The notes under the pieces: generated by a model
Told to the model about the DNA's origin: nothing
What the model saw: the letters and a program-made list of their open reading frames with translations, nothing else
Databases searched by the model: none
Shown here: one piece after another, positions 2,339 to 63,200 of the stretch
How positions within the stretch are numbered: position 1 is the first letter of the stretch
Layout of the letters: every line of letters starts with the position of its first letter
DNA from: Bimastos eiseni
Taxonomy: Eukaryota; Annelida; Clitellata; Crassiclitellata; Lumbricidae
Direction: 5' to 3'
Length of the DNA: 64,000 nt
NCBI GenBank assembly: GCA_959347315.1
Contig: OY365815.1
Location: forward strand, 21,168,298 to 21,232,297
Program-made: the position numbers and the translations under genes

Positions 2339-2502
2339 TGTGTATATCTGAGCATTTTGTACAAAACTTCTCAAATGTGTTGTAGTACAAGAGGTTGCGC
2401 ATATAAATACGTATGATTGTATATTGTACAACAGAAGCTTAGACAAAATAATATCTTCTCTAAGACTGAGAAATTGACATCATTAGTAAATTGGAGCTAA
2501 CT

Positions 2503-12788: not shown

Positions 12789-13079
12789 TTTGTGCAGTTT
12801 ACGCTGGATTCATATAACGCCAGACGAGTGAACATACAGATGACAGAGCACTGAAGGATCTGAAAACGTTGCCATCCTTTATGGAGGATGTATGTGTGTA
12901 AGGCGTATGTCGCCTTTAATTTTAGTATAGCGGAAGTGAAAGAAACGTCTTGAGAAATGCGAGTAAAATTCCAAAAAGGCACCGCTGCCGTCAATGATTC
13001 TCCACTCGGTGTTTGCCTTTTTTCAGCGCAGAAACGAACCGGACATAATTGCCAATCTGTTCAGCAAACGATGCGCACA

Positions 13080-33600: not shown

Positions 33601-33814
33601 GGATTTGTTTTGGTGCACCGTCGGTTGATGTCCTGTGAATTGTTATGGCGGCGCTTTAGAAGTTTTTTAGTCCTAGTCATGCTGTTTTGTATACATCTAT
33701 GGTACTCAATATTGGACTTATTATCGTCTACTCTTCGTGATAAAAAAATGGTGCTAAATTATGTATAAAATGATAAATGTATTAAACTCGTAGGCAGTAG
33801 GTTAGTGAGCGAAG

Positions 33815-36800
33815 ATGGTTTATTTGGCAAAGCGTGTGAAGTTTCTGCAATCGATTTCATGCGGCCTCTCCGTTATTGCATACAGACCGGTGTGCCTCTG
33901 CGGTGTGTTGCCCAGATGGACGACGCGTGGCTCATCTATCAACCTAGGTCGTTCTTACGCAAAAAATGCGAGCAGCAGTAAGATAGTTAGCAACATGGAA
34001 GACATAAAGAAAATTCGAAATATTGGTATTATGGCGCATATCGATGCAGGAAAAACCACAACGACGGAGAGAATGCTTTATTATTCGGGATTTTCCAAAC
34101 ATTTAGGCAAGTACCAGTGTTATGACAAACTTCCTTTTGCTACATCCAAAGCTGAGTGGCTTGACATATAATTTGTTAACTTTATTATCGTTTGTTTCTT
34201 GGGTACTGGTCCGGATTTAAAAAACGAAAAAACACGGTGTAAGAATTTCAGGTCACACTAGGACTAGGGTGACAACATTTCTCTTCTGCCATTCCGGGAC
34301 ACTATAGTTTCTCCTGAGATCAACCCGAATCATCGCTCCTTCTAGTAATTTCTCGCGGACCGGTCGAAAATTTTGGACCATTGGCTGAAGAACACTGCTT
34401 TAATCAATCAATCAAAGAGACCTAATCTAATGCGTTTTCAAGCCATCTACTCAGAAGTGCTCCAAGTCCAACTTTGGCCAAATAAGACAGATTTCAGAGT
34501 GGACTAAAAATGGGTAGAGAGGTAGAGAGTTCTTAGGCAAGAGTCGAAAATCCAATGGGAGGCTATTCAAAGCAGTCAGACCCACAACCATAAAATGTAT
34601 TAGCAGTAAAATGTTTTGACCGGCACCATATCCTTCATGTGACTTATGCTGTATTTGTGATAATAAACGTATTGCAAGGTAAATCTGAGGCAGGATCAAT
34701 TTGAGTTTTGAAGATTATTTGATTCTTGGCAGAATTTATAAAATTTAGAATTAAATTGAAGTTATAAAAATTTAGGAAATGTTAACAGTGGCGACACTGT
34801 GACGGATTATATGATCCAGGAGCGTGAAAGGGGAATAACGATAATGTCGGCTGCAATAACATTCAACTGGAAGCAACACAGGATCAATCTCATTGACACT
34901 CCAGGTATAGAAAGCTTCATTGTATGTTTTAGAGCACTTGTGTAGTGCCCTTTATATGTAACATACAAGGGTGCTTTTATAAATGACTTTAATGTAAAGT
35001 ACCTTGCAAAGATGGTACTTTCCATGCTACAAATATTACTGCTGTTCAGCACTGCCAGTTAACACAATCCGTGTTTGAATGTTTGGGGTGCCTGCTCCCC
35101 ATGCTGTTTGAGGATGAGTAGCATTTACATTTGATGGAAGCATTTGCAAGACATGGTCAATGGTCATGATCACCAACTAGTTGTCGGATTGTCAGTGCCT
35201 GGGTTTAAGGGGCAACAGGACAGAGGATATGCTATGGTCACCAGGTTGGTTGTAGACACCATGGAGGGCAGTTGATGTAACTCTTAGAACCATAGCATTT
35301 TGTAGCTCCATTGTGGTTTTCCTGAGCACAGATGGTATATAATAAGTCTGATAGTCAGCACTGTAAAAATAGAGAAGCCTAATAGTCAATTGGTCATCCT
35401 TTGACATTGGTGTCTAGATTTCATCCATGACCAAAGAAATGTACAAATCAGATGTAAGAAATTATGTCTGAAATTAGATGCCTGAATTCAAAGGAATTAT
35501 AGAGCATTCTTCATGAATTCTTCATGAGCTTTCATTGCACAAGGAATTGAATCTAAGATAAAACTGATGAATGGTGTGGGGGTACTTGAATCAGAGGCAA
35601 GGGAGTAGGACTGTCAAGGGTGGAGGCTAAGTGACCAATGGATTCATGAAATAGAAAGTTTTGAGTTGCTGTTGGAGGGCTAGATTGTTGAGGCACAGAT
35701 GCACAATGAAGGTCAAATGCAAGGTAATGTAATTGATAAATGCCAATGTAATAGTTAATAATGTACGGTAAAATTAAGAATAATTGTGCTTCTAACTAAA
35801 ATTTTAAAATAATAAAAAAATTTTGATTTCCTGTGATAGGAGAAGTTTAAAGTATATTTCTCAGTAACAGATAAATAGTGACAAATGAAGCATTGTGTTT
35901 GCATAGGTCATGTGGACTTTACCCTTGAAGTCGAGAGATGTCTGCGAGTTTTGGACGGAGCAGTTACGGTTTTAGATGCTTCAGCTGGTAAGTTTAAGCC
36001 AATTCCTATTTAGTTTAAGCCAATTCCTACTTTAGTTTAAGCCAATTCCTACTTTACTGAGTTAATCTTAATAGGTTTGGGGTCATTGCATGATTATGTA
36101 ACACTCATGGGTCCTAGAAACATTACGTGGATGGGTTAGCTGAATGTTGCATAACGCTTATTGATTTAAAACTAAATATGTGCAATAGTATATAAAGTAA
36201 CACTAAATTTAGTGTTTAATACACACAGTGTTCAAGCTTATGATACAAAATATTAGCCAATGCTGATTGAAACCTGAGGATAAGTTAAGAATGCAATTTA
36301 CATGAAAGTTATATTGCATCTTCTGAAGAATAATCAGGGTCACTCAAGAACGATATTTACTATTGAGAAAAATGAGATATATTTGCGCCATTATGCAAAA
36401 AAGAGGTACTAATCAGAGCAAATTCATGTTGATATTGCTTATAGGCTATTGTAGAATAGTGACTGTTTTAAGTGTTTTGTTTCTTCAATGTTTGGATCAT
36501 GTTCTGCATTGCATAATTCTGACCTTTTGCATGATTCTAAGGGTAAAGTTTGCTAAGGACAACAGTTTTGAGAAGCCTTGTGATTGAGTGTTTTGCTTAT
36601 ATTAACTAACTTTAATTGACACTAGTGCTCATACATTATAAGGACTATCAATAGAGTTCCTGCATTGATTAATATAAGGTTAACGTTACAATTTTCTTTG
36701 TTGCAAAACAATTATGAATTATATACTTGACAGGTGTTGAGGCACAAACTCTGACTGTTTGGAGGCAGGCTGATCGATATGGTGTGCCACGCATTATATT

Positions 36801-39800
36801 CCTCAACAAAATGGACAAGACTGGTGCCGACTTCTATGGATCACTTGACTCAGTCCGGGATAAATTAATGACAAATCCTCTTCCGCTTCAGATTCCGATT
36901 GGAAGGGAGAAGCAGTTTTCTGGTGTTGTTGACCTTTTGGACATGAATGTGTTCACTTGGGATGAAAACGATCCAGACGGTTCAACATTTAATGTCCAAC
37001 CTCTAGACAAATCACGATCTCCACATGTCTTTGAAGAGGCAATGAATTCGCGGGCTATGCTACTTGAATCTCTTGCAAGTCTTGATGATTCTATCGGCGA
37101 GAAGTATGTAGAAGATGTGGATTGCAGACAGCTGTCTAGGAATGACTTGATCGATGCTGTTCGACGTTTGACATTATCAGGCAAGGTGGTCCCAGTGCTC
37201 TGCGGGAGTGCTTTACGAAATCGAGGCATTCAGCCACTCCTGGATGCTGTTATTTTATTTTTGCCTTCTCCCACTGAGCGTGAGCACCATTTTATTGACT
37301 ATTACTCAGGTGAGCTTAGTGCGCTTGCCTTCAAAATACTTCACGATAAACAAAAGGGTCCAATGACTTTCCTGCGCCTCTATTCAGGATCGCTGGAGTC
37401 AGGAGGATCGCTGTATAATGTCAACCGTGGGTGTGCAGAAAAATTGGGAAAGCTCTTCCAGGTGAATGCAGATGAACATCGAGAAGTTCATAAAGTCACC
37501 TCAGGCAATATTGTGGCAGTGACTGGTTTGAAACAGGTAGATGCATTTTGTGGTAAATTTAAATTTCGATTTTGATGTGTTTAGAAATCTTTGAATGATT
37601 GATAAAAATCTAACTCATGTGAAAATTAGTATTTGATATGATGGGGTTTGATGTTCCACATTGTGGTGTGGCATATCTTTATAAGCATGGAACTGAAAAG
37701 TAAGGTCGTGGGTCTGAGAAGTACGGTGTAAGCTGGTTTTCATTGATGTTGAGATGAATACAGAAATTTTTATTGTCTCTAGTACTGATACTCGAGACTT
37801 CATAAAAATGTGTGGATATTTTAGACAATCACTGGTGATACTTTGGTGGCCAGTCACCGAGTGGCAAATGCTGCTCGTGATGCTTACTTGCGAAAGATGG
37901 GGAGCAATGGAGAGGATGGTGTAGATTCACCTGTGCTGGCTGGAATGACCATTCCGGATCCAGTATTTTTCTGCTCTATTGAACCGCCATCCATGGCTTT
38001 CCAGAAGAGTCTCGATCAAGCCCTTGAGTGTCTGCTGCGAGAGGATCCCAGCCTTCGCATCCGAGTGGATCCTGACACTGGCCAGACGATCATTGGTGGC
38101 ATGGGTGAACTGCACTTGGAGATCATCAAAGATCGAATTCTTAAAGTAAGATTTGGAGTTTTGACAGTCAGTAAAATGTGAAACCATTAGTTACTTTGTA
38201 TGTTTCGAATCTTTAAGCTAAAGCATTGTAGAGATAGCAATTGCAATCTTCCATGTAACTAGAAATATTTTCAGCTAAATACATTGTAATCAGTTTCGCA
38301 AGGCGCCTGAAAATTCAAGCTCTGAACATTATGGTCTTGTTTAAAAAATTGGGAAACTGCACTTTCTGCTTTTAAATTGTTTTGTTTAAATTTGATACTA
38401 TTCTGAAACCATGTGTTTATTTGGTTACACAGGAGTATGGAGTTGATGCCAGCTTTGGTCCATTGCAAATTGCCTATCGTGAATCTGTAATGACTTCTGG
38501 CCGGACAACCGTAACAATTGAAAAAACAATCGGAAATACGAGACACTCTGTTACTCTTTGCCTTTCCATTCACTCTAACACATCCAATGTCGTTGAAGGA
38601 AAGCATTCAGGTCATGAGAAATTCATTGTTGTTCCAGACGATGGCTCAGATTTGAATGAAAAATCTCTCAAACGTGACCATGTTAAAGCTCTAGAAAGTG
38701 GAATTACATCTGGTTTGTCCAGAGGTGAGTCCTCAGTTAAGAAAAGATGCTGTGATTTTATTGTGGCTGTGATATATAAGTCCTGAATTTAGCTTCTTAA
38801 AACTGGTAAAAGTATTCTATGACATTAGATTCTGTGAACCATACTGCTACTATTACAAAGTGCTGCTTTCACTATGTGCTCCCTGTCATTGCATAAGCCA
38901 CTTAGAGTGGGGATTAACCATTTTTATTGTAATTGGACACTTACATGATGCCACTCAAAGAGCAAACAGATTGACGGAACTCGTATGCTAACCCCTATGC
39001 TGTTAATTGTCATTTAGAACTAGACTAGTAAACATTGTACAGTGAACCGGAAGAGTCAACAGCATGTTGACGCAACCGGCAAGTTTCAGTTGGCAGTTGA
39101 TAATATGCTCAGTCTTGAGTATTTAGTCTACCTGCCAAACTGCTAATATGTTTAAACACTAAGAGTAGACTTCAGTGAAGCTATTAATAGGGCTGTCAAA
39201 CATCTGTTAAAATCCCAACCGGTTAACCGCCGTCCATGTGAGCGGTTAACCGGATAACCGTTGGTTTACTAATTTATTAGGGATTTTCTAGGGGGGAAGT
39301 AAAATATACAGGCCCGGCTACAGCAACTTTGCCGCAAACTGACTTAGTACTACTATAAATTATGCGTAGTTAGATGGCCAAGTAGCGCAGTTTATCAATG
39401 TGTGCTGTGCTAGACGGTCTTCGGGTGGGTCGTTGGCTCGTACTATAAATTAGAAATATATAGGTGGCCCAGTAGTATCAATGTGTGCTAGACGGTCTTC
39501 AGCTCGGTCGTTCGCCCGTCGCCCGATGATGTATCATGCAGATTTCGGGTGGTCTAAAAAGTTTAACTCCCTGAAATAAAGTATCCCCTTGAGTAACAAC
39601 AAGAAATAACATATTCTGAAACAAGAAGGATAAAGATTTAGAGGGTAGATAATTTCAACGGCTAGCGGCAGGTGAATTTCACCAACCGGTTACTAATCAA
39701 CGGTCGGTTAATCGGATAACCGGTTAACCGTTGACAGCCCTAGCTATTAATCATAATTACAATAGAAAATAAACGTCTTAAGAGCCTCTTGGATGCTCTA

Positions 39801-43548: not shown

Positions 43549-46500
43549 ATGGAGAAGATTAACGCGAGACGCTGCACTGCTAACTATCGCTATCGAATGC
43601 CAAAGTACTTTCCTTACATGGCAAGCGATGACTTCGCCACTCCTGGCTTATTGTGGGATGGACTGAAGGAACATACCACCATTCACGGCTTACCCAACTA
43701 CTATAAGTCACAAGGTAAGACCTATTTCAACCGTAGGCAATTGTATATTCAATTTAATTCCTTTCATTTTAATGAGAAGACCTATCTAGCACAACCGCAA
43801 CTTAGTTTACAATCACATAATATAGACCTAGCTTACGTGAGAAGCATTTCATTAAACGACAATAATGAGATGGACCGACGACAAGTTTCAAGCCGTATAA
43901 TTAGGCCTATGTCAAGGTCCAATAAAAGTTACACATCTTTAAATAAAAAGCAAACATAGGGAAGGTGTCCCGTTAGTTCAGCTGACCAAATTAGCAGACA
44001 AATTGAAGCGTTGTTCATTTACGATGGAGTTGATTCAAACGTTAATGATTGTATAGCGCATTGATTTTTGGCAGCGATTTACCTTGAGGCGACGATCGAT
44101 TGCTATTTGTTAATTATTAGAACGCGCTATAGGAGTCGTTAGATGAGATTGGATTAATTCAACAATGGCTATGCCTATAAGCAAGGGAACACCATTTCAG
44201 GTTTTTCAGAGGGAATCGAATTGAAATTTCAAAGTGAAGTCAAACTTGGCCACTTTTTAAATTTTGTATTTAGTGTAAGCTTACAGTGCAAAATTGCAAG
44301 ACAAAAATGCATGCACGTTTTCACTTAATATAAATTAGGTTCTGATGACTTTATTTAGGCTTGCGCTTGAAAGAAATGTAAAAAAATCTATGCAAACTTT
44401 AGTTTTGTCAATAGCGTAGGTATTATATATATATATATATATATATATAGGCCTATGTCTATATATATATATATATATAGGGTATAGCATATAGGCCATA
44501 GTAATTCTAATATTATAGCGATTTGTCAAGAAATATCGCCTTTGTTTCGATTAGAGGACCAAAAATATGCACTAAAATCCCTAATCCATCTGTCCCGTGT
44601 ATTTGTACAAGCTTATTTCTGTAGGCATAGGCCTACTCAACGCTTGATTTGCAGTTAATTCCTCGATCAGCTGTTGACCTTTCCACCACGATGAGGTACC
44701 GTAGGCTACAGATACCTGTAGGCTACATTGGAAGGGCAATGCGTGGGAAGCACAGTTGAACGTCGATTATAGTATTATAGATTGGGGCTGACCATGCTTT
44801 CCATCAGATTCAAAACCCTCTCCCCCCCCAAATAACTCCCTATCCAAACAGCTTATAATATAGATGCGTAAGTTTCAAGTCTTAAGGTAAACCACGTAAT
44901 TTTCTTTGAACATGAAATGATAGTAAAATGTTGTTCTGTTGTTCTGTCGGTTCCCAGTGTTAAGAACGTTTACTTAATGTTCTGTCAGGTTTAATGAAAA
45001 GAGGATTTTGGGTCGTAGCAATGTTGCTGATGACTGCTGGACTTTGCTACAACTTTAAAGGTCTGACGACGAATTACTTGAGCTACCCAGTCACCGTTGC
45101 AATCACTTTAGTCCAGCAGCAGCAACTCGTCTTTCCATCCGTAACCATCTGCAACTTGAATCCCGTTCGAAAGTCGGCGCTGGATGCTGCGATTAAGAAA
45201 GGAGAGAGTGGGATCGATGACAAGCAATCGAATCCGATTGTGAGTTTGAAGAAACGAAGGAAAAGGCAAATCACAGGTGAGCATCTCTATTGAGTTTCTC
45301 AGATAACACTGTACAATTGTACGTGAATCTGAAACGTATGCAATATTCATGTATGGATGCATATATATGTATGTATTATGTATGCATAAAGTATGTATGT
45401 ATTATGTATGTATTTATATGTAATAATGTTACTATTATATGTGTAGCGTCGTATGGCTAACACGGGACTATGATTTAGTTCGTGATGTTGCCTGATTACG
45501 TGTTGCGGATGGTATTGCCTTGGTAGTCGTGTCATTACTGTAACGTTGTTATGATTTGGCATCGGTTCAACCTGGCCGAGCGCGATAGAAGCGACCAATA
45601 GAAGGAAGACATGCGGTGGTAAAATAAGCTCTTTATTCGTCGTTATACATCAAGATAACCATCAGAATCTCTCTACTAGGTCTATTCATTCCTCCACTAA
45701 TTCAAGCTTCGGTTATATTGAAACTCCAAAGTTTCTTTTCTTCTCACATATCCATTGATGCCATATAAGTAAGCCAGTAATGTATGCATGTGTGTTTGCA
45801 TGTAGACCTACAAGGCTTATGCATGTAGGCCTATGTCTTTCTGTACATGGACCCTTGTAAAGCAACTTTTGAGAACCTCACAGAGACGACGACCACGGGC
45901 GCCATCTAGTAACCTTTCGTAATCATAACCAGACATCAATGAGAAAGATGAGCAATTTATATACATATACAGGCCTACTACATTTTTCCTATACGGCTAA
46001 TTTTGTTCAGAAAATGTATGTCTTCTTAATATTTCGGTGTCATACTATGATGAGGTCTTTCTGTTCTCTAGGTTCTTGTGGCTCGTGGCTGTGTTTCCAA
46101 GGATTCAGCTACTGCGCCTACTCGACCGCTTTGACTGCGATGGATGCGTGGAATGCGTGTAAGAATGTCGTTTCCTCCGCAGAGATTCTCAGCGTAGGCA
46201 ACACCGTCGAGTTCATCTATGTGCAGAAACTCATCAAGTAAATATCCGCAGAAAGCGACTTATAAATATTGATTTTTTTCATTGCATATTAGCGACATGA
46301 GTTGGAGCTAAACATTTAGACTTATATGGGATCATATATAGCAATTGGGATTTGCGTCTAGGGGTCAGAGTAACAGGAATTTGCTTTGGGTGCTCGATTA
46401 ATCTCTTCGATGTAATGTTATTGATCAGGGCCGTACCGAAGGGGGCCAGCGGGGTCTAGGCCCAGGGCGCAAATGTGGAAAGGGCGCACATTTCAGGAAG

Positions 46501-49500
46501 GAGTAACTTATTATTCCATAAAATGCACTATTTTCAAAATGTGGGGCGCCAAATTGGTGCTATGCACAGCTAGGGCGCAATTAGCTAGGCACAGGGCGCA
46601 ATTATAGCTCGGTACGGTCCTGGTAATGATGTAATCGAACATTTGAATAGCGCCGTTTAAATTCACAAGCGTCTTAACTGTGTCTGTGCTAAAGCCAGAT
46701 AACATTATTTTATCGACTGGCGATATATTGCGCCGTTGGTCATTTTAAGTGAGAGCGGCGTTAAATAGATGGCCCACTCTGTGTTATCCGTTGTTTCTTT
46801 TATACTTGCAGCAATACCTTTAAGGGCGACTGCTGGCTTGGGGCATATACGTTATCGACGTCTCCTACTAATAAGACCTTTACCTATGTCGATGGAACGT
46901 CGACCAGTACTGCGCAGGCGTGGTGGAGCCCCGAAGAACCAAACGGATCCGGACGTTGCATACGGATAGACTATGTAGCCGGTGACAAACTAAGAGACAC
47001 GAACTGCAGCGTTCCTTGTAATTTCATTTGCAAACAATTAAGCACAGGTAAAGTGGAACGCGGACGATTTCACCGATCTAACCTGCTATAGTCTTACCGA
47101 AATGATTATAACTTAATTGATGTTTGTCTGCATTGCGCTTAATCTGTATTGGAGAAATTAGACCTCCCGCTTGAATCGCGACGTTTATATATTGCCTCAA
47201 CATTTGCAGACATAGTATCATCAGAGTGCGTTTACATCGAAACCTTTGCATTGAATGATGCAGTATCAACGTGTGATATCTTTATGTTTCTAGACAGTTC
47301 TTGCCTATCAACTTCTCAGAAGCCCACGACAAAGACAACATTGCACCATGCAACATCAACGTTGCCCAATCGCGTAACGACGGCAACAACAACACGAACA
47401 ACCACAAAAATGTTAACATCAACAACCAAAAAAATGTTACCATCGACAACCACAGAAATGTTACCAACAACAACCACAGAAATGTTGACATCAACTACCA
47501 CAGAAATTTTGACCTCGACAACCACAGAAATGTTACCATCTACAACCACAGAAATGTTACCATCCACAACCACAGAAATATTACCATCAACAACCACAGA
47601 AATGTTACCATCCACAACCACAGAAATGTTACCATCTACAACCACAGAAATGCAACCATCAAAATCACATGACGTAACCACGTCCAGTAGGCCTACAGCT
47701 CCTTTTATTTCCTCATCAACGCTTGCGATTCGAACGAAGGCCCCAACGATCGGTTGTTGTTGCCAATGTTGCTTAAACGTCGATGGTGAAGAAATGTGCA
47801 ACAGATGCAGCAACGATACGTTAGAAAGTTCAGCCATTTGCTCTGCCAGGAAACCTCCACGAGCCCCATCTACTTCGCGTCCCTCGCCCACTCCCATTCC
47901 TTTCTCCACCAATCAGCCACCGGTCATGGGTGCCGCGTTCAAGGCTCCACCATCGATGAATGGAAGCAGTTTTCCAGAAAGAACCGCTAAGACGGACACC
48001 TTCCTCGCCGGCGAGTTGTTCGTGGAGAAAATGGCAACGCTGACGATGAAAGAGAAAATTGATCTGGGATACTCACTGCAAGATATGATTCTAGATTGCA
48101 AGTATGCCAACACGGAATGTCTCGAGAGGTAATCATATTAATTAACCAATATGTACATAATATAATAATTACAATAAGTCTTAATCCCAATTGCAAACCT
48201 CGTATTTCTTTTACTTCCAAAGAGACCCACGTATAGCAATCCAGTGATGAAATGAACTGTAAGACTAGAAGCCTTAGAGCCTTAGAGGCTATAGAAACAT
48301 CCATCTCTCATTGCTAAGGTCAATACGGAGGTGCACTTAGCTACAGGTAGTGTTAATTTAGTCTTTAGATCAATGTATGCAGGGGTTGAATTGATGGGGG
48401 TGTTTTCTACGTTGGGGACAGAAGTACTGATCATTGCTCCGTAATATTCAACACCTCAGCCTGTTAAACGCGATTCAATATCGCCGGTTGAGAACAAACA
48501 GCTGACAGCGATCCAGCAGTGAAGCAAGAATCGCTGAGAGATCGTTCCAAGTTCTTCCGATTTAGAGGCCAATAACTATTATTCTCGTCGTTATATGTTT
48601 GACTTGCGAGTGACGCTCTATAAATTCGGAGATTTCGATTACGATTACCATGGTGCTTGGTTTTGCGTTTTACTAGCTTGTGCAGCAAACACTGTGACTC
48701 AGTTTGAACATTTATTATTTTGTTGGTTTGAGTACTCAGTTCTACAGAAGATTATATTGTGCAAGATGTGTATAATGTTCAGTGACTTCGAATCGTTCTA
48801 CAATCCTCTTCACGGTAACTGCTACGTCTTCAACTCTGGTTGGAATACATCCAGCACACTTCGAATGGCAACGAGGAGTGGTCAAAGCACCGGTAAGACC
48901 CACGGTGACAATTATGAGCACGATACAATTATGAGCACGATTCAATTATGAGCACGATTCAATTATGAACAGGGTTCAATTATGAGCATGGTTCAATTAT
49001 GAATATGGTTGAATTATGAACATAGTTCAATCATGAACATGGTTCGATTATGAACATGGTTCAATTGCGAGCATGGTTCACCTTCATGTATGTGGCAGAT
49101 CAACCAGTGAGACTAATCGTCGCGACAATGAATCACATCTACCGCTTCACTATTGTTGCAACCAGCTATAAATTTACCCACCCATGTTATCTATATAACG
49201 CACCATCAGGATAACTATCCAGAGACGCTTTCGATCTGCCGAGAAGGAGAGCCTTGAGGAGTCTATAGAAAAAACTAGACCGGTCGTGCGAGAGAGAACG
49301 TTGGTCTGAGGGAAGGCTATTCCAAACACTGCGGATCACAAATGTTGCATCACATTCAACAACAAATGTTATTTGGAAGGATTATAAATATATCTTTCTC
49401 TGCCACTATTTTGAAATTACCGCAATTTCAAACATATTTTTAGGTAAAACTAAGGTATTATCCTCAAATGAAGTGACTGCCTAATATGTCGCAATATATC

Positions 49501-50921
49501 AAGTCACTGAGGTTTTTTTACTTTGTCGTGGCTGGGAGCGGAGCAGGTTTTTGAAGAGGCGCTATTTAAATGCTCATAATGAATGAATGAATTGGAGGAG
49601 AGCTGGAATTGGTACGAATGAATGAGCGAATAGGCACTGCCTGACTGATTGGTTGGTTTATTTGAGAAACCTTTCATTATAATAATAATATGCTTATAGG
49701 ATTGAAGATAATGGTAAACATAGGCCAGAGAGACTACATTCCGAACATTGGAGATTCGTCTGGCCTTCGAGTTGTCGTCCATCCGCAGCGTCGAATGTCC
49801 TTTCCAGAGGATGACGGTATCACCGTCAGTCCCGGATACTTCTCGTCCATTGCCATCAAGAAGGTCGTTCAAGAACTCCTCTCGCATAATCGTAGACTAT
49901 ACACTTCTCGGTTCAATAGATAATGAATAGGTTTACAGATTTAGGTTTCTGTGATTTGCAAGGAAACATTCAAGAAACTTTGGATTTTCGATCAAATTGG
50001 ACCCCAAGCCGATGGAAGCCAAGTCTCGCATCATGTAACTTACTGCAGTGTGTCAGTTTGTCAAATAAATGAAAATACATACATAGACGTTTACAGAATG
50101 AACTGTCCAAAAAGAAAGAAGGTAGTTAGGTTGTCATTATTGTCGTATAACAGAAGGTTTGCGGTGATAGGACACAGCATAGGTAGGCTCTGTACAACCG
50201 AACGAACGCACGTAGGCCTATATAAGCTATTATATATGTTTCTATGTATAATTGTATATGCATGTATATATATTATTCTCTAAATTATGTATAAGGACAA
50301 TTGTTGGTAGACTATATTATTTGCTATAAGTAGGCCTAAGCTTCGAACTTTCTCAAGGCCACGCCGTATCGCCAGCCTAGGCCGATTTAGGTCTACTATC
50401 AGCAAGAAACAAAATACTGCGGTCAGTTTTGGTGCCAGGTCAGAATATGGTATGGGTTCAGGTAGACGATGATGTGTGTTTCAACTTCTTGAAACTGGTT
50501 TGAGATATTTTGTTATCTGTATGATTTCAGAGTCTTGTAAATCTTCAGCCTCAACCCTACGGAAACTGTACCACGAAGAGTCAGACGGATGTTGAGATTA
50601 ATTTCTACGCAGCTACACTTCCAGTGGGTTACAGCCGACAGGTAACATTCACAAAATCTTCTCAATTATTATGCGATAAATAAATCTATAGGTTCTTCTT
50701 CTGCTGCAGCAGTATCCGTGCATAGGACCAATAACCCCGCTCAGGTTAATAATGGATTGCAGACACTTATTTCTATTTCTCATACTTTAATTGGTCCTTT
50801 TGTTTGCACGCGCCCTCGTGGTGGTGGTGGTGGTGTTGTTGTTGTTGGTGGTGGCGTTGGGGATGATGATGATGTTGATAATGACGACGACGACGAAGAA
50901 GAAGAAGAGATGATGATAATG

Positions 50922-50977
<56 letters not shown>

Positions 50978-53734
50978 TACTATTATAATAATAATTCTAA
51001 CAATAATGGTAGACTGCATTATGTATTAAATGTGCGTATAATAATAATTATGTCATTGCCACTCATATGCGAAATAAAAGGCCTGCGAGAAGACTTGCTA
51101 TCAAAAGCATGTCATGGAGGCGTGCCTGTGCATGGACCCTTATCTGCCGAGTGGAGACGTCGACGAGAGATCCTCCGTTCCAGTTTGTTCCAGCAGGAAC
51201 ATCACACAAGGTATCGTCACTCTTCGAGTTTAAACGACGGGCACTGAAAGAATGCATGCTGGATTTTTCTGCATTAGTCTTGCTTCAATTGGCTGATTCG
51301 CTGACAGTCTTGACCCTTTGTGAATGATAGTGGCGCACTAAAAATGAGGTATTGTGTTGTAGTGTAGACCTATCACTCTGAAGACAGAAGAGGTGAATTT
51401 AGGTGCGGCTGATGTGCTGCCGGTATGAATGTGGCGGATGAACTTGGCGTAGAAGACGTTGAAATTTTGATGTACTCAATAACGAAAAGATGCAGAGCGA
51501 AGAGTCCTGCCGCTGGTGAAACCTGAGAAGGGTTTTTTAATAACTAGTCCAATTGGCACCGTCAGATCCAGACTGATACTAGACCAATGTGCTGGTAAAT
51601 AGGTAGCCAAGTGAGCACGTGACCAAACACGGTAATATTCTAAAATATTATCAACAAAGGTGAAAAAATCGCGTCGACGGAGTTGAAGGAGTATTTTCGC
51701 CAACCGCTTTAGTCTCTGCTGAAGTTTTTGCAGGTTGATAAAATTTGTTCGTCGTTTCTTTAGATGACTGCAGATACACAATCACAAAGAAATTTGCAAG
51801 TAGCGATCTAAGCTGCAACTGCCCGGATTCTTGCAGGTAGTCTATTCTTGATTATGCGGTTAAACTAATGTAAATGTACGCAGTGTCGATGCCATTTTTA
51901 TGCTGAATAGATCGTACGACCTCGACCCTGCACATTTTTAGCAAATTAATCGGATGAAATCCTTATCCAATAATGATTGAATTGGTTACACGTCTCTGCA
52001 AAGGTCTGCTCCCCGAATTCAGGATTATTCTAACCATAATTGCAAATCACCTACTAGCCTATAGCCCTATCATCTTCAAGCTCAGTCGACGCCACTTGAG
52101 GCTATAGTCTCACTTCCTCAATAGCTCTTGCCCCAATACACCTAGTCATCCACCTTCCAATTCTCGACCTAGGCAACAGCTACTCTGCCTCATCTGACCC
52201 TTTGGAAATCGGTCTGCTACATTGCAATCTGTTTTTTATAGAGTGACGTCCTACACGCATCATACGTCGTTGCGAGCTTGGCCATCCGAGAAAAGTCGGG
52301 TAGGAGCAGAGTTTTAACCCAAGACCTACTTGCTTTTAAAACTATATATATATATTTATATAGCCCTATTATAATATATTATACATATTATACTCAAGCG
52401 AAGGCAAGATAAAATTGCAAGAGATCATATTCGATGTAAATTAATAATTATTGTCTATTAAAGTGCATTTTGTCAATAATAAATTATAAGTGGTTTAACA
52501 GTAGATATTTATCATTTATCGTATTACAATGGTTCAATAGAACAATGATTTTCAATTGTTGTCTATAAACGATTTGATAAGATCAAAATTTATCAGTCAT
52601 GGCAATGAAATGGTTTGATTTTAGTGTTTCGGTTTAATTTGTTTGCTTCCTACAGAAGGCAACTCTTGACCGTCTTTCACGTAAACTCGGTCCTGGGTTC
52701 AATAGGTCAGACGATAAACTGATTTCTGATAACCTAGTAGAATTCGAACTCTACTTCGAAGAGCTCAGCTATAAACTGTTCGAAGAAAGACCCGGATATC
52801 CGGTGAGAAAATTCCTCTATTTAATGTTCTATGCAGTTATAGAATATTCATTTGGCGCGGCAATAATTAAATCAGATTTCGTGTGCAGAGGAGAAGGGGC
52901 AGGCCCTACATATTTTTGTGTTTGTTTTCAACCGTCTTGACATCCTACACTTTATTTTATAGCGTATTACGAATCACATTGATAACGTTAAATATGTTGT
53001 GACAGTATATTTCGTTTATTATACCTTCCATCTGACTGAACTCTAGAGCTGCTCGCTCTCTGACAGGACCCGTCCCAAGCCCTTGAAAAGGAGGAGGTGT
53101 ATTGAACTGATACCATATTGCCATCTGATTGTCGCTCAAGCAGAAGACCGGAGTCGTTGCAGCATAGCATCAGGATTGAAACAGACTATGAAGCGGACTA
53201 TAAAATGTATGCAAGATGTCACCCACGCTATAGATCGCACTCGGACAGTGAGTGTCAGTCCCAGTCAGAGTAAAGGAGGAGGGCGACGCCAACGATCCCT
53301 GTTATCACACAGTGTCATTAAGCTGAAACTACTACTAATGCCGTGTAATCATATTAATTAACATATCGTTCGTACAGGCACAGTCGATATTTGAGAAAGA
53401 CTATATACAGCTCAACTGCAACTGATTTCGCATTGTGAACGAATCTGGAACATGGCTAATCCTGGCATAATTTTCTCCAGAGTAACACACACGTTTGATA
53501 ATTCAGTGTAGGCTACAAAGTATAAGCTGGATAAATAAATAATCATTTCTATTAACTGAATTTTCTCGTGGTGTTTCTTTACTGCAGACTATCAGTTATG
53601 TGTCGGACTTGGGAGGAATTCTCGGCCTGTGGTTCGGCTTCGCAATGTTCTCGTTCTTCGAATTCTTTGAGTTCTTCGCTGACATCATGATGCTTGCAGC
53701 GAGGAAAGTGCTGACTCGGAAGAACCAAAAATGA
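43549..53734 (+). CDS. DEG/ENaC-family channel with inserted C-type lectin domain and mucin-like stalk, complete
   Basis: Thirteen exons join without a break into 876 codons: 43549-43714, 44989-45276, 46072-46237, 46812-47047, 47294-48128, 48783-48892, 49700-49863, 50531-50641, 51081-51210, 51764-51836, 52242-52299, 52656-52802, 53588-53734. An in-frame stop at 43522-43524 supports the start. The gating motif HG sits in TTIHGLPNYY, followed by TM1 (about 62-81) and FPSVTICNLNPVR (104-116). A furin-like KKRRKR lies at 143-148, then a CTLD (about 153-285; CWLGAY, WWSPEEPNGSG, FICK), a Thr-rich stalk with TTTEMLPS repeats (about 324-407) and an eight-Cys block starting CCCQCC (440-445). The channel palm resumes at GYSLQDMILDC and runs through CYVFNSG, VVVHPQRRMSFPEDDGI, PYGNCT, ACEKTC, CNCPDSC and LVEFELYFEELSY to TM2, with GFA (845-847) at the filter. 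Such channels form cation-conducting trimers. Lectin gating or anchoring is my inference. Exon 9 has a weak acceptor, and the small exons 10-11 are set by phase and homology. Confidence 0.92.
44429..44481 (+). repeat. Two (AT)n runs separated by TAGGCCTATGTC
   Basis: AT dinucleotide runs in intron 1 of the first channel gene. Confidence 0.9.
46426..46622. mobile_element. Short inverted-repeat element (hAT-like MITE)
   Basis: A 197-bp element in intron 3 of the first channel gene. It has inverted termini CAGGGCCGTACCGA and TCGGTACGGTCCTG, and the flanking octamers ttattgat and gtaatgat match at 6 of 8 positions. The interior repeats AGGGCGCAA/GGGCGC motifs. No coding capacity. Confidence 0.75.
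47409..47656 (+). repeat. Coding 24-bp tandem repeat (TTTEMLPS units)
   Basis: About ten copies of a 24-bp unit in exon 5 of the first channel gene encode T-T-T-E-M/I-L-P/T-S. The unit preserves frame, so copy-number change would lengthen or shorten the predicted O-glycosylated stalk by 8 residues at a time. Confidence 0.93.
48908..49080 (+). repeat. 17-bp minisatellite in intron 6 of the first channel gene
   Basis: About ten copies of an AATTATGAGCACGATTC / AATTATGAACATGGTTC unit, starting 16 bp after the exon 6 donor. A fragment of the same array recurs outside the gene at about 54499-54560. Confidence 0.9.
50818..50996 (+). repeat. Compound triplet microsatellite (GGT, GAT, GAC, GAA, AAT)
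   Basis: Consecutive GGTGGT, GATGAT, GACGAC, GAAGAA and AATAAT tracts in intron 8 of the first channel gene. The Ile- and Ser-rich frames it opens are artefacts. Confidence 0.95.
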
Positions 53735-54498: not shown

Positions 54499-54560
54499 GA
54501 ATATGGTTGAATTATGAACATAGTTCAATCATGAACATGGTTCGATTATGAACATGGTTG
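54499..54560 (+). repeat. Second copy of the 17-bp minisatellite
   Basis: GAATATGGTTGAATTATGAA and the following about 40 bp match 49008-49060 in intron 6 of the first channel gene essentially base for base. The copy lies about 760 bp beyond the stop codon of that gene. Confidence 0.85.
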
Positions 54561-57472: not shown

Positions 57473-60400
57473 ATGCTGGCTGACACAAATTTTCAGCAAA
57501 TCAGAAGTGGTTCAGCTTCCAATCAAATCGAAAAAATTCAAAGATATGATTTGCAAGAAAATGGAGGAAAAGAAACCAGAGGAAGGATGGAAGTGGATGA
57601 TTTCGGAATGGGAAAGGATAGGCGAGCAAATGGAAACGGAAACATCGCGAAACTTAGTAGAAGTGAAGACAGCCCAAGTGTAGGAACGAAATCGTACGTA
57701 GTCATGAAAGGAGGAATGAACTCAGACGGGAAAGGCCGCGTTCGCAGAGGAATCAAAGGTTACGGGTATTGCTACCAAACACCTTCGCGTTTTAAATATG
57801 TCGATGACAACATCACGCCAAGCGTCCTGTTGGATGGTCTCGTCGAGAAGACGACGGTTCATGGATTGCCAAACTACTATCAGGCACGAGGTGGGTAAAT
57901 AGCATCAATCGGTCTAGGATAGAAAAGAAAAGATCGTTTCCCTCCTAATAAATCTATATCTACTATATGTTACACCGAAATTTGCCAGCTATTCAGTTAT
58001 ACAATTAATGGTATTGCCGCAGTCTGGCTTGACAGAAATTATATTCTCTGGTCATTATCGGTATCGACGCCTAATGTATAGAATGATGGGATATCATAAA
58101 CATTTTTTGCAAAGCCAAATGACATCTTATTATAACAGTGACCCCTTATGTCTTTAAAGATAATAATTGTATTTAAATTCAATTTTTTCTATCGATTTCC
58201 GCTTCTTCTCAAATCGATTTATTCGAGTCCAGCAGATTATTTGGACGGATGATATGAAAGTTAATTGCCGTTTCCTTGTGTTGCTGTCATATTTATTTGG
58301 ATGGCGATTATTGTGGACAGTGATTATCTTGTTATTCTTCTATTTTATTTCTATCTTTATTAAGTATTTACCCAGCTTTTTTAATGTAGGCCTATATGTT
58401 GTTCGTTCAAGCAATTTATCGGTACCAACAGTCTTTCAATAACATTTTAAAACAATACTTATGCAATCGCCAAACAGGTTTTTAGTTTCTAATATCTCCT
58501 CTGTTGGCTCAAGGATTTATGCATGCAAATATACATACATTTATATATGTATAGATATTAACATATATATACATATATATGTAAATAAACAAAGAAATCT
58601 GCATAATCATAAGCTCATAGCATATTGCTGCTGCAATAGCATTAAGGCATGCCAAGAAGTCTCATTTGCTTGGAAATATTCCAGGCCCAGTAAAGAAGTG
58701 TTTCTGGATCGCAGCGATGTTGCTGATGACAGCTGGACTTTGCTACAACTTAAAAGGTCTGACGGTGAACTACCTGAGCCATCCAGTCACCGTTACCATC
58801 AGTTTAGTCCAGCAGCGTCAACTCGTATTTCCATCCGTAACCATCTGCAATTTGAATCCAGTTCGAGCATCGATTCTGGAAAGAATGTCTGTTGAGAGGC
58901 AGAAATCAGTTCAATTGAGGCGAAAGAAAAGGAGTTCAACGCCAGGCAACATTAAATTATGAATACAATAGCATTGTTAATTACTTTAATGATGTCGTCA
59001 ACAGTTTTATATGATTGTGACAAAGAATAGCAATGATGATTGATATATGATGACGGTACACGAATTATGACCACAATTAGCATAGCAACAGCCACAACGA
59101 CGACGATGATGATGGCAAGCTGAAGTGGTGGCAACAATGATGATGATAAGGTAACAAAGATGATGATGAGACAAGGACAAGGAAAATGGGAGAGATAGCA
59201 GATGAAGGGGCGAGGACAAAGGTGATTGTAAAGATAATTAATGAAGGGGTGAAGACATTTCTGTTGGTGACAAAATATATAACAAATAAAGGGCGAGGAA
59301 AAGGATCGTGACACATGATTTAATGCATAATTCAATGAAACTTGATATAGCGCCTCTTTAAGGAATCTACTTAGAGGCGCTCTTTATGCTGGCCTACATA
59401 ATCTTAAGGGGTAGAGCGAAGACTGTCGTACCGATTCGCGGACTTGGGGAAGGGGTCGACGAGCAGTTCCTCACTGGTGCAATAGAAAAATGCTACAATT
59501 AAAATGATCACGACGGTGATGGTTGATGACGAATATCGCTTATGTCGGCAGGTGAATGTCCAGGCGGTTGGCAGCTGAATAACAGTTCCTGTTACTGGGC
59601 AACAGCGCCAGGAGTTATGACGAATTGTGGTTCGGCCTTGGTCAACTGTCTTGCATTCGCTCGTGGGTCACTTGTCAGCATCTCCGATCAGCAGGAAAAC
59701 GACTTTGTCATGAATCTCATGTGCGCAGGTGTTTTACTTCATGACTCAGACAATGATGACGACAGTTATGTTGATCACGAGGACAATGACGCTGATACAA
59801 ATTGCGATGTTGATCAACTGCAGACTATGATGGTGATCGTGCCGTAGATGGTGATCATAATCGTAATCTCTAAGCTTCTAAGACGCCACTCAGAAGTCAA
59901 GCGCAGGTATCAGCGTATTCATTGAGAGAAGATCCTTTTTGCAAGGCATTGGCTATATGACATGCTTGACTATAGGAGATTTAAATAGAAGGATGACACG
60001 TACTGTCATGTGTATAACTAATTCGATTACTCACCAAGCCATTCTACACCGTTTCACACGTATGAGTGAATTCCACGAATTTAGTCCAAAGGAAGAACAT
60101 AAATTCTAAACACGCTTCTCAGAGATGTGATAACTTTAGGCATACTGAAATATCCTAAGACAATTTTAAATCATAAGCCATATTTTTAATTGAATGCTTC
60201 CATAGGGCAGCGTTTGAAGTGTTGGCAAACCTGGATTTCTATTCCATTTAGTGGGAATTTTACTCTGAACGACTACTGGATCGGACTTTACAAGACGTCG
60301 ACTGAAAACGTAACAACAACGCACTGGTACGATGCTAACACGTCGCCATTCCGTAACTTCTACCCTGGAGAACCAGATGGAAGTGGTTATTGCGTTCGTA

Positions 60401-63200
60401 TGGCCTTTGGAGGCCAGTGGAAAGACACAAGCGACACTTCTCCCAATGGATACGTCTGCAAAATGCCGGCTGGTACGTTCGACTTGTCACAGAATGAACT
60501 TCTTGCCAGACTTGACGGCCTTAATGCCATTGATTCTATTTGATGATGTGATATAAGTACGGGGTCTTCATGAAATATCTGGCTAAATTTTTCTCTCGAT
60601 TAGTATAAAATTCACCGTAGTCTTTCTAAGCACGCAAGTTCTCACTTGAACTAATCAATTTTTTCAAGCGATAAGGCACCATCATTGTCTTCCGAACTAA
60701 GGCTTAGCATAAAATGTACCTACAGAATATACACACATCTCACACTTTGTTTGCATTACAAATTTCTCTGAACATATACGCACCGCGTGTTCTATAATTT
60801 TCAACTTATCTAAACGTGCCCATATTCCATTTTATGTGAAAGCTTGATGCACTATACGCCCTATGCGTGTCCCCAATGCACACCCAATCACCCATCATCA
60901 CCTGCCTCAGGCTATTCTATCTATCACCACAGGGGCTTATCACTCAAACACTGAAGTGTCATCTCTTCAAGAACTCATACCCTGACTCATTCTATCCTCC
61001 GTCTTCCAAATCTTGCCATAAACGACATCCGCCATGACAGCCACTCTGCCCTCTTTGACCCATATGTAAAACGGACTCTTGACCTTCCCTGCACTGCCCT
61101 GTTGGGAAACCCTATTGATTAGACGAAGCGTTCTTCAATATGCAGGTGCCGTGCGCTTGGCTTTCGATATATATATATATATATGACGCTACAGAAGTTT
61201 CAAGATTACTATTACGATTGCGACTACGGAAAAGGTTGTCATTAACAGAATTTTACTCCTGTGCGTTTCATTTGTCTATTGTTACACAGTCTTCACAACA
61301 GCCAGACCTGTGACAACCGCAGCGTCCACATCAACAAAAACGAAGAAGACAGTAGGCCTAACGACAACAAAAACTGTTACTAAAGCAACACAAACTACAA
61401 CACGAACCACTCGTCTGTCCACAGTCCCAACAACGACAGTCAAGCATGCAGATTCAACCAGCAAGATCAAGCCAACAACAGCAGCAGCAATAAGTCCTAG
61501 TTTCGATCCTCTACTTGTTAGCAGTAGGCCTAACACCATCCAAACCCACCAAGAAACCACAGTCAGTGATCAGTCTACTGCGTCTACTCCGATGGTTGCG
61601 CAAGAAGAAACTACTATTGTTCGAATAGTTGAGCCAGCAACGACTTTCAGTCTTTGGACAGTCGACCAAACTACAAGCACAACAGGTTATCAAGTTACAA
61701 CCACCATTATTCCGACAATCGACAAGGCTACAACATCTCTCCTTCCCCAAACTGATGAAACAACTATGGAAGGTCCAACAAGCGATCAAGCTACAACTTC
61801 TATTGTGCCTTCAGCTATCACTGCAATCATTACTACAATCGATGAGCGGACTTCTTATTCGAAAGAACTATCAACCGACATTTCGACTGACATTTCGACC
61901 GACATATCGCCAACCGTAGAACCAACAACCTCTGCGCCTGAGATACGCGTTGGTTCTGAATCCACAGAGAATCAACAGAACGACAGAACGATCGATCAAC
62001 AAACGACAGTTAACGACGTCGAGTTCTTTTCGTCATCAACGGCGGAGACGGAGACGGAGACGGAGACGTTCTCCAAGTCTAATACGAATTCTCTCTCGAT
62101 CATCGGTTGCTGTTGTCAGTGTTGCTTCACTGTAGATGGTCAAGAAACCTGCAGCTCATGCGAGAACGATACGATAGAGGAGTTGACACGATGTGCTTCC
62201 CTTGCACCTCCCTCAGCCACATCCGATCCCTCGACCATGACCTCCTCCACTCCAGATGACGTGACCATTGATCCTCCCACTGTCACTGATCCTCCTTTCA
62301 CCGCTCCTCTACCATTAAACGGAAGCAGTTTTCCAGAAAGAACTGTCCTTGATTCTCGCTTCCTTCAAGGAGAACAGTTCCTGGAGATGATGGCAGGCTT
62401 CTCGGATAAAGAAAAGTTGGAATTGGGATATTCCTTGGAAAGCATGATGCTGGAATGTCATTATGACGATGATAAGTGTTCAGCGAGGTATGAGTTCTAT
62501 AACAATAGTTGCTAGCTATTCAGGTAACGACGACGACGTTGACAAAACATTGATGATCAGACAATAATATGGTCATTAGTTGATAATGGTGATTAGATGG
62601 TAATGTTGATGGCGATAATAATTATGTTTTTGTTCCAATCCAGAATATTTATTGTCCTGTGATTAACAAAACTTTTACCCTTAGTGAAATAATAACAGTT
62701 TTTGGCCTAATAATAGCAATAGGTAATTAATAAAATAATAACAGTCTCACATATAAGCTTACTTGTTCTGTCTTAAGCCAGTTCCGCTGCTATGTACACA
62801 TTAGAAAGATACTGCTTTGGATGCATTGACATGGCCAGGACGCATCATGGGGTGAAGGACTCATCATGGGGTGAAGGACTCATTATGGGGTGAAGGACTC
62901 ATCATGGGGTGAAGGACTCATCATGGGGTGAAGGACTCATCATGGGGTGAAGGACTCATCATGGGATGAAGGACTCATCATGGGGTGAAGGACTCATCAT
63001 GGGGTGAAGGACTCATCATGAGGTGAAGGACTCATCATGGGGTGAATGTTCGTGATGCATCCACTTTATTATAACATTCTATCAATTTAGTGACTTTGAG
63101 ATGTTCTATAATCCACTTCACGGAAACTGTTATGTATTCAACTCTGGCTGGAATCGATCGGAGACATTGCAAATAGCAGAACACAGCGGAAGAGAATCAG
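57473..63200 (+). CDS. Second DEG/ENaC-CTLD channel, first six exons, cut by the window edge
   Basis: Exons 57473-57890, 58685-58945, 59552-59728, 60206-60472, 61290-62487 and 63091-63200 join in frame (810 codons plus one base). The cytoplasmic N-terminus is longer than in the neighbour, and a later Met start is possible. Features in order: TTVHGLPNYY; TM1 (WIAAMLLMTAGLCYN); FPSVTICNLNPVR; polybasic RRKKR (218-222); a CTLD (about 228-374) with CPGGWQLNNSSCYW, ARGSLVSISDQQEN, YWIGLY, YPGEPDGSGYC and QWKD; a 399-residue Thr/Ser-rich exon ending in the eight-Cys block (CCCQCC at 648-653) and NGSSFPERT; then GYSLESMMLEC and SDFEMFYNPLHGNCYVFNSGWN. Exon 6 has the same 110-nt length as in the first gene. 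The rest of the palm and TM2 must lie beyond 64000. The exon 2 donor is either GC (CCAG|gcaaca) or a weak GT 12 bases earlier; both keep frame. Confidence 0.88.
60880..61095 (+). repeat. Unidentified repeat with residual coding look
   Basis: One frame reads DIRHDSHSALFDPYVKRTL before a stop at about 61120. A diverged similar stretch (TTCCAA..., CAGCTACTCTGCCTCATCTGACCC) lies at about 52060-52205 in intron 10 of the first channel gene. It is probably a shared transposon relic that I cannot identify. Confidence 0.35.
62833..63047 (+). repeat. 19-bp minisatellite, about 11 copies, just before exon 6
   Basis: The unit GGGGTGAAGGACTCATCAT is repeated almost perfectly, with single-base variants (ATTATG, GGGATG, GAGGTG). 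It ends about 43 bp before exon 6 of the second channel gene, so it occupies the region where the branch point and polypyrimidine tract would normally lie. Confidence 0.95.

What the first reader, a model, noticed from the sequence alone, without database searches (positions are those of the whole stretch)
43549..53734. A DEG/ENaC ion channel with a C-type lectin domain and mucin-like stalk built into its extracellular loop
Thirteen exons join in one 876-codon frame with all the channel landmarks (HG gating motif, TM1, FPSVTICN, palm cysteines, CxCPxxC, TM2). Between TM1 and the palm, where acid-sensing channels have their finger helices, lie a CTLD, a Thr-rich repeat stalk and a Cys-rich block. 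Known DEG/ENaC proteins sense protons, peptides or force. I know of no described family member in which a lectin fold replaces the finger. A channel gated by, or tethered to, glycans on microbes, matrix or gametes is a plausible inference.
Basis: partly seen in the sequence, partly recalled or inferred. Interest (0 to 1): 0.92.

Follow-up and report, generated by a model that had tools for sequence, protein, structure and literature searches.

The report
Annelid ion channels with lectin heads
A genome that is probably an annelid's carries a row of six genes, one whole and part of a second in this window, each encoding a predicted ENaC-type ion channel with a predicted lectin-fold domain set into its outer loop, where recognition of something outside the cell would likely control the channel.

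Summary
It is the first of six tandem genes (C10:21211846-21297905; gene 1 and part of gene 2 lie in the window) with the same order: TM1, polybasic site, two-exon CTLD, Thr-rich stalk, Cys block, palm, TM2. At least three genes of a second cluster on C7 carry CTLD exons, and two public tubeworm predictions show the combination. A cousin on C1 has the slot without a CTLD.

Corrections: the genome looks annelid, not echinoderm. The CTLD does not replace the finger; by alignment it sits where ENaC has its protease-sensitive GRIP segment. None of the six CTLDs keeps a full calcium/sugar site, so glycan binding is not supported.

Best reading: a DEG/ENaC subfamily, probably cleaved at the polybasic site, in which capture or tethering by the CTLD modulates gating. 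Architecture near certain; function untested. Seven of my ten paper searches paired a lectin or CTLD term with channel terms; none listed a description.

The parts
43549..43714 (+). gene 1 exon 1: N-terminus, HG gating motif (43684-43689)
44989..45276 (+). gene 1 exon 2: TM1, FPSVTICN, start of finger, polybasic KKRRKR
45249..45266 (+). codons of KKRRKR, a furin-type polybasic run, three residues and a split codon before the CTLD exons
46072..46237 (+). gene 1 exon 3: first half of the CTLD (phase 1 in, 2 out)
46812..47047 (+). gene 1 exon 4: second half of the CTLD (phase 2 in, 1 out); EPN kept, LRD where WND would stand
47294..48128 (+). gene 1 exon 5: Thr-rich stalk, Cys block, second part of finger
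47397..47669 (+). 24-base tandem repeat, 11.4 copies, coding for the TTTEMLPS stalk
47755..47844 (+). CCCQCC...CNRC...C Cys block; a like block is in all six array genes, in P0001 and in the C1 gene
48783..48892 (+). gene 1 exon 6: GNCYVFNSGW signature
49700..49863 (+). gene 1 exon 7 (palm)
50531..50641 (+). gene 1 exon 8
51081..51210 (+). gene 1 exon 9
51764..51836 (+). gene 1 exon 10: CNCPDSC
52242..52299 (+). gene 1 exon 11, 58 bases
52656..52802 (+). gene 1 exon 12
53588..53734 (+). gene 1 exon 13: TM2 and stop; filter Gly-Phe-Ala at 53636-53644
57473..57890 (+). gene 2 exon 1 (start codon not certain)
58685..58945 (+). gene 2 exon 2: TM1, FPSVTICN, RRKKR; GC donor assumed
59552..59720 (+). 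gene 2 exon 3: CTLD first half
60252..60472 (+). gene 2 exon 4: CTLD second half (EPD, WKD)
61302..62487 (+). gene 2 exon 5: Thr-rich stalk, CCCQCC block, finger (5' end not certain)
63091..63200 (+). gene 2 exon 6; exons 7-13 lie beyond the window (C10:21232482-21236375)

Best explanation
This is the first of six tandem genes that encode predicted ENaC-type ion channels with a predicted C-type-lectin-fold domain between a polybasic run and a Thr-rich stalk in the outer loop, and the channel would likely be cut at that run and gated or tuned when the lectin-fold head binds something outside the cell. Shown: gene 1's structure and domain order, their repetition in five tandem neighbours, in sampled genes of a second cluster and in two tubeworm predictions, and an insertion point by alignment in the ENaC GRIP slot, as a phase 1-1 pair of exons. 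Inferred: three subunits assemble like ENaC; a furin-type protease cuts after KKRRKR on the way to the surface, leaving the CTLD as the free N-terminal end of the second fragment, on a probably O-glycosylated stalk held by the Cys block; binding to a neighbouring cell, microbe, matrix or gamete surface moves the helix 1/helix 2 segment of the finger, the part through which ENaC answers proteases and FaNaC answers peptides. The head varies more between copies than the channel (33% against 52-62% mean identity), which fits several ligands read by one kind of channel.
For: one frame, both Pfam domains; six genes, no internal stop codon, splice sites fitting gene 1's phases in each; Lectin_C over cut-off in genes 2-5, so 5 of 6 with gene 1; CTLD mean pairwise identity 33%, exon 2 62%, exons 6-13 52%, 15 pairs each; codon-model omega about 0.33 for CTLD, 0.20 for exons 6-13: below 1; polybasic run, stalk of 24-44% Thr, Cys block in 6 of 6; best solved relatives are ENaC alpha, beta, gamma; polybasic run shared with P0001, P0003, P0004 and absent from P0002, P0005-7: 4 of 8 rows, gene 1 counted; PMC6197857, passages: GRIP lies between helices 1 and 2, first furin site N-terminal to the P1 segment; 106 (PMC11026163, passages: that corner of the channel holds the FMRFamide pocket and other gating inputs); 88, 90, 94, 95, 113, 116, 121.
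Against: No RNA or protein data. No ligand known. 0 of 6 CTLDs keep a complete calcium site. Gene 6's CTLD does not reach the Lectin_C cut-off, even scanned alone. A long flexible stalk could uncouple the head from the gate. A polybasic run is not proof of cleavage: PMC8791634 (passages) notes one in human delta-ENaC that is not cut, and 4 of 8 rows lack it. The filter reads GxA in 6 of 6 where seven relatives have GxS, so even ordinary conduction is not certain. Pairwise dS could not be computed in 11 of 15 CTLD pairs and 10 of 15 pairs of exons 6-13, so omega is rough. CTLD-less cousins exist in the same clade.
Confidence: 0.42

Rival explanations
1. The CTLD is an anchor, not a sensor: it ties the channel to matrix, mucus or cuticle so that movement pulls the finger, as proposed for touch channels of the degenerin branch.
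For: Long Thr-rich stalk, in gene 1 with a 24-base tandem repeat; ECM tether model for degenerins in PMC10148893 (passages).
Against: A tether would not need heads that are only 20-45% identical between neighbours; in the one C7 gene read further (L039) no Thr-rich stretch was seen among ORFs of 45 aa or more.
Confidence: 0.25
2. The CTLD takes the place of the ENaC inhibitory tract: it holds the channel shut and is shed by a second cut, so activation is by protease and the head is a removable plug.
For: Same slot, by alignment, and same kind of first cleavage site as ENaC GRIP.
Against: By eye no second polybasic run follows the CTLD in gene 1. Gene 6 and the C7 gene have two polybasic runs, but both lie before the CTLD.
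Confidence: 0.15
3. The CTLD is a passive or structural passenger, needed for folding, sorting or partner choice, without a ligand of its own.
For: Calcium site incomplete in 6 of 6; CTLD-less cousins exist (P0001; C1 gene).
Against: CTLD exons are kept in all six array genes and in three sampled C7 genes, with omega below 1 in the array.
Confidence: 0.15
4. The model fuses two genes: exons 3-5 belong to a separate lectin gene inside the channel gene, or the assembly is wrong.
For: No transcript seen here.
Against: Six tandem copies in the same order, sampled genes of a second cluster, Lamellibrachia and Ridgeia predictions; exon 5 holds stalk, Cys block and finger in one open exon.
Confidence: 0.02

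Closest known systems
ENaC alpha/beta/gamma subunits (SCNN1A/B/G), with the GRIP domain
   Same: Best solved matches by sequence (with the insert left out: 6wth_A 2.2e-55, 9blr_B, 9blr_C); insert at the GRIP slot by alignment, with a polybasic run near its start.
   Different: CTLD, Thr stalk and Cys block (about 408 unaligned residues in gene 1 against 124 in gamma); filter GxA; heterotrimers and amiloride block not tested.
FMRFamide-gated channels FaNaC (annelid, mollusc)
   Same: DEG/ENaC fold; ligand taken in by the finger region (PMC11026163, passages).
   Different: Peptide pocket inside the finger; lower sequence match.
CTLD-less relatives: P0001 (unnamed source, 751 aa) and the C1 gene of the same genome
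   Same: TM1, polybasic run, CCC.CC block, finger, palm; P0001 filter is GxS, the C1 filter was not read.
   Different: No CTLD; in the C1 gene a single phase-1 intron stands where the CTLD exons lie.
Predicted proteins of Ridgeia piscesae (P0008, 1103 aa) and Lamellibrachia satsuma (P0011, 732 aa)
   Same: Polybasic run, then CTLD (three in Ridgeia), then (Lamellibrachia) Thr stalk, CC.CC block, GSRFPERT, finger, palm; both carry PF00059 and PF00858.
   Different: Automatic names only; P0011 ends in the palm; P0008 looks like parts of two neighbouring genes; Ridgeia filter is GCS.
C. elegans degenerins; snail protein P0023 with an LDLa domain plus ASC
   Same: Extra extracellular module in the loop of a DEG/ENaC protein (P0023: PF00057 plus PF00858).
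   Different: Different modules; the degenerin comparison is recalled, not tested.
Polycystin-1 and sea urchin REJ proteins (recalled)
   Same: CTLD on a channel-linked membrane protein.
   Different: Only ASC and Lectin_C reach their cut-off in gene 1; different channel family.

Membership tests
DEG/ENaC (Pfam ASC) | ASC profile over its curated cut-off | tested here: met
   6 of 6 array genes, 225.7-282.4 bits against 23.6
DEG/ENaC (Pfam ASC) | HG motif before TM1 and [FY]P[SA][VI]T[IV]CN after it | tested here: met
   6 of 6 for both; the two membrane segments are placed by alignment only, no membrane predictor was run
DEG/ENaC (Pfam ASC) | palm cysteine pattern | tested here: met
   invariant cysteines in A1 and in exons 6-13 of the array; gene 3 exon 9 lost in a stretch with 200 N; gene 5 has C.CV..C for C.CP..C
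DEG/ENaC (Pfam ASC) | typical but not defining: G/S-x-S selectivity filter | tested here: not met
   GxA in 6 of 6 array genes; GxS in 7 of 7 of P0001-P0007
DEG/ENaC (Pfam ASC) | trimer, Na+ current, amiloride block | not testable with these tools
   needs expression
ENaC-type protease-activated subunit | polybasic site between finger helices 1 and 2 | tested here: met
   run present in 6 of 6 array genes, slot by alignment; helix borders rest on recall and on the low-confidence P0001 model
ENaC-type protease-activated subunit | second, distal site and cleavage that activates | tested here: inconclusive
   by eye no distal polybasic run in gene 1; cleavage not testable
CTLD superfamily (fold) | Lectin_C profile over cut-off | tested here: met
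   5 of 6; gene 6 fails but is 38-45% identical to the CTLDs of genes 3, 4 and 5
Ca2+-dependent sugar-binding C-type lectin | complete EPN/QPD plus WND calcium site (motifs recalled) | tested here: not met
   read from the alignment: EPN/LRD, EPD/WKD, EPS/WST, EPS/WLV, QPS/WIV, QPS/WSV for genes 1-6: 0 of 6 complete
Polycystin-1/REJ | REJ, GPS, PLAT domains (recalled) | tested here: not met
   only ASC and Lectin_C over cut-off in gene 1

The most novel reading that the evidence does not exclude
A recognition-channel repertoire: annelids carry tandem clusters of ENaC-type channels whose protease-trimmed lectin-fold heads each read a different surface cue (microbe, gamete or mate, symbiont, self), turning contact directly into ion flow without a second messenger, and with a filter (GxA) that may pass K+ as well as Na+.
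Probability: 0.2. Interest if true: 0.92.

Novelty: new variant of a known kind. Interest (0 to 1): 0.74.

Why it matters
DEG/ENaC channels are known to answer protons, peptides, proteases and force. A subfamily with a recognition fold built into the slot where ENaC is switched by proteases, present in this genome and in two tubeworm species and multiplied here into clusters with divergent heads, would add a new kind of input and gives a natural set of variants (six heads, a CTLD-less cousin in the same genome) with which to test how the finger controls the gate. It also bears on the abstract of PMC8791634, which says that pairs of polybasic tracts in ENaC evolved with the move to land: a single run stands at the like place in gene 1 and in an orthonectid and an acorn-worm protein.

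Tried and rejected
A first 12-exon model had frame errors. Two-gene fusion or mis-assembly: made very unlikely by the repeated order. 'Lectin replaces finger': rejected on alignment. Echinoderm or hemichordate origin: rejected on erythrocruorin linkers (that the family is annelid-specific is recalled; the 14 controls, none of which rang, are said only to be well-known genomes and may be prokaryotes). An exon-5 pattern search with five Cys codons was swamped by TGC repeats (11101 forward and 10523 reverse against 8341 and 7403 in the control). Model of P0001 by AlphaFold2 was weak (mean pLDDT 52.6); used only to show helices on both sides of a disordered insert; fold search gave ASIC, FaNaC and ENaC at the top. 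Gene 6 CTLD alone in Pfam: only UL45 C-type-lectin-like, 17.5 bits, below its cut-off of 27. One clade of all CTLD bearers: not rejected, AU p 0.055; the best tree nests the CTLD-less pair among them with weak support, so one gain with loss, or two gains, remain open. Seven asked for a lectin or CTLD term, or its Pfam number, with channel terms; I saw their listings (20 of 50 papers in 32, 12 of 37 in 101, all hits in the others: 1, 1, 3, 0, 5). None showed a CTLD in a DEG/ENaC protein; papers outside that library were not seen.

Full report
OBSERVATION. A first attempt with 12 exons broke the frame; with exon 6 starting at 48783 and a 58-base exon 11 at 52242-52299 it gives 876 codons in 13 exons, all 12 introns GT..AG, no internal stop. 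Pfam finds ASC at 2.3e-81 in two stretches and Lectin_C at 1.4e-9, residues 173-282. Solved relatives of the channel part are ENaC subunits first, then ASICs and FaNaC; those of the CTLD are CD209/SIGN-type receptors, best 8.4e-8.

A ROW OF SIX. With 220 kb of neighbouring sequence (22 pieces) tblastn of gene 1's exons and some paralogues' exons placed six genes head to tail on the + strand, C10:21211846-21297905, with no hit at E 0.05 in 103 kb before or 94 kb after. All six give spliced frames without internal stop. Exons 6, 7, 8, 10, 11 and 12 measure 110, 164, 111, 73, 58 and 147 bases in 6 of 6; exon 9 measures 130 in 5 of 6, gene 3's being lost in a stretch with 200 N. Splice sites were sought with gene 1's phases imposed and its lengths as a guide, so equal phases and lengths are partly built in; in gene 2 exon 9, gene 3 exon 2 and gene 5 exon 2 I took a site that scored slightly lower than another. 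What the guide did not supply is that such sites exist in each gene and that tblastn finds the exons in the same order; exon 11 was found by its own scan, and in gene 4 two candidates tied. Not firm: exon 2 ends of genes 2 (GC donor assumed), 4, 5, 6; exon 5 starts; start codons. CTLD exons with phases 1-2-1, a symmetrical module, fit in 6 of 6. In 6 of 6 a polybasic run stands near the end of exon 2, a Thr-rich stalk (158-279 residues, 24-44% Thr) follows the CTLD, then a CCCxCC block. Lectin_C passes its cut-off in genes 1-5; gene 6 does not, even alone, yet is 38-45% identical to genes 3, 4 and 5 in that stretch.

ELSEWHERE IN THE GENOME. The genome is 660 Mb in 118 contigs. An exon-6 signature (GNC[YF]xFNSGW as DNA, one mismatch) has 15 places and 0 in the reversed control: 7 in the C10 row (one an extra partial exon in gene 5), 6 on C7:36.907-36.965 Mb on the - strand, one on C1, one on C6 (not followed up). 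Lectin_C hits (74 places, a lower bound) include three in the same C7 stretch and four in the C10 row. L039 from C7 shows exon 1, a TM1 exon with two polybasic runs, both CTLD exons, Cys block, finger, exons 6 and 7 (the donor of its second CTLD exon is weak); L032 shows a CTLD exon and the finger exon; L041 both CTLD exons. So at least three C7 genes carry the CTLD; the rest of C7 was not read. The C1 gene (L040) has exon 1, the TM1 exon ending near RRRKKRST, then one phase-1 intron without any CTLD match, then the Cys block, finger, exons 6 and 7. This is the empty slot in the same genome. Of the eight loci given, two (L032, and L036, which is gene 4) show channel exons beside the CTLD; the other six do not within about 1.5 kb. 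The PF00858 list (93 scored of 1037 candidates) does not contain the C10 row, so it cannot be used to count other fusions.

WHICH ANIMAL. Erythrocruorin linker domain PF16915 has 11 matches, best 1.1e-33. I recall this family as annelid-specific; on that basis the genome is an annelid's. The 14 control genomes had none, but they may be prokaryotes and say little. A mitochondrial check (COX1) did not complete.

OTHER SPECIES. Three protein searches gave 2, 5 and 19 proteins; the first scored only the 7983 candidates sharing most words. Two of the proteins carry both domains: Ridgeia piscesae P0008 (polybasic RKRKKR, three CTLDs, palm) and Lamellibrachia satsuma P0011 (KRKRKKR, CTLD, Thr stalk, CCRCC, GSRFPERT, finger, palm; cut short). 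P0001 from an unnamed source has the run, stalk and Cys block but no CTLD. Intoshia (P0003) and Saccoglossus (P0004) have the run and repeats, no CTLD; three Diadema proteins and one Aplysia protein have neither run nor CTLD. A tree of 22 sequences (476 columns) puts the six genes together (100/100) and with P0001, Lamellibrachia and Ridgeia (93.9/95). A tree of 16 (218 columns) with the C7 and C1 genes keeps that clade (95.7/89) and nests the CTLD-less pair inside it with weak support; one clade of all CTLD bearers is not rejected (AU p 0.055).

WHERE THE HEAD SITS. Gene 1 aligns to ENaC up to a few residues past FPSVTICN.NP and again from VEKMATLTMKEKI on; between these lie about 408 residues here and 124 in gamma. 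PMC6197857 (passages) places GRIP between helices 1 and 2 with the first furin site at the start of the P1 segment. The weak model of P0001 has helices at 132-140 and 324-341 on either side of a disordered stretch, and the second aligns with gene 1's FLAGELFVEKMATL. So the CTLD is in the GRIP slot as far as alignment can tell; the finger is not replaced.

WHAT VARIES. Mean pairwise identity (15 pairs) is 33% for the CTLD, 62% for exon 2 and 52% for exons 6-13. Codon-model omega is 0.33-0.34, 0.38-0.39 and 0.19-0.20; pairwise dS could not be computed in 11 of 15 CTLD, 10 of 15 exon 6-13 and 1 of 15 exon 2 pairs, so these are rough, but they favour constraint. The CTLD is not faster than exon 2 by omega, only by identity. 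The loop that in true C-type lectins reads EPN or QPD and WND (recalled) reads EPN/LRD, EPD/WKD, EPS/WST, EPS/WLV, QPS/WIV, QPS/WSV in genes 1-6, and QPN, EPD, NPD for the first triplet in three C7 genes. None of the six is complete. The third filter residue is Ala in 6 of 6 where P0001-P0007 have Ser, 7 of 7. In PMC8536179 (table passage) PK/PNa of alpha-ENaC S589A is 0.567 in mouse but 0.056 in rat, beta S531A 0.010 and gamma S543A not permeable, so a looser filter is possible, not implied.

MECHANISM. Shown: architecture and its repetition. Inferred: trimer, cleavage after KKRRKR, stalk glycosylation, ligand or contact moving the finger. I commit to modulation of gating by what the head binds (0.42), over anchor (0.25), plug (0.15) and passive part (0.15).

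NOVELTY. Seven of ten paper searches paired a lectin or CTLD term, or its Pfam number, with channel terms; their listings showed no report of a CTLD in a DEG/ENaC protein. Term look-ups in the main text found no word beginning with lectin in PMC9822975, PMC10507113 and PMC10148893, and no 'sodium channel' in PMC10140915, PMC10192322 and PMC8878817; figures and supplements were not seen. The combination exists as automatic annotation of two tubeworm proteins. It is a new variant of a known kind.

Noticed in passing
window 57473-64000 and C10:21232298-21297905: Second to sixth tandem copies of the CTLD channel gene; gene 2 starts in the window and was not in the finding.
   Followed up: yes
G000 C7:36907463-36964948: Second cluster of the same kind of gene on another contig; three genes sampled.
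   Followed up: partly
gene 1 53636-53644 and genes 2-6: Selectivity filter GxA in all six array genes, against GxS in seven relatives.
   Followed up: partly
window 45249-45266: Furin-type polybasic run at the start of the ENaC GRIP slot, shared with orthonectid and acorn-worm proteins, outside vertebrates.
   Followed up: partly
C10:21275069-21275098: Extra partial exon-6 copy inside gene 5, a possible alternative or decayed exon.
   Followed up: no
window 48909-49080 and 54499-54559: The same 17-base minisatellite (CAATTATGAACATGGTT) in an intron of gene 1 and again behind it.
   Followed up: no
window 1193-2339: Long 22/47-base minisatellite, about 49 copies of the short unit, open in several frames.
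   Followed up: no
window 12342-12809 (-): Open frame with a BTB_2 (T1-type) domain, 2.1e-17, as in voltage-gated K+ channels or KCTD proteins.
   Followed up: no
window 36718-37575 (+): Open frame of an elongation-factor-G-like gene (GTP_EFTU 1.6e-16, EF-G_D2 5.6e-13); further likely exons from 33809 to 38606 were seen only as open frames.
   Followed up: no
window 16774-17145 (-): C2H2 zinc-finger open frame with about four fingers.
   Followed up: no
P0023 (Candidula unifasciata): A snail protein with LDLa plus ASC: another extracellular module in a DEG/ENaC protein.
   Followed up: no
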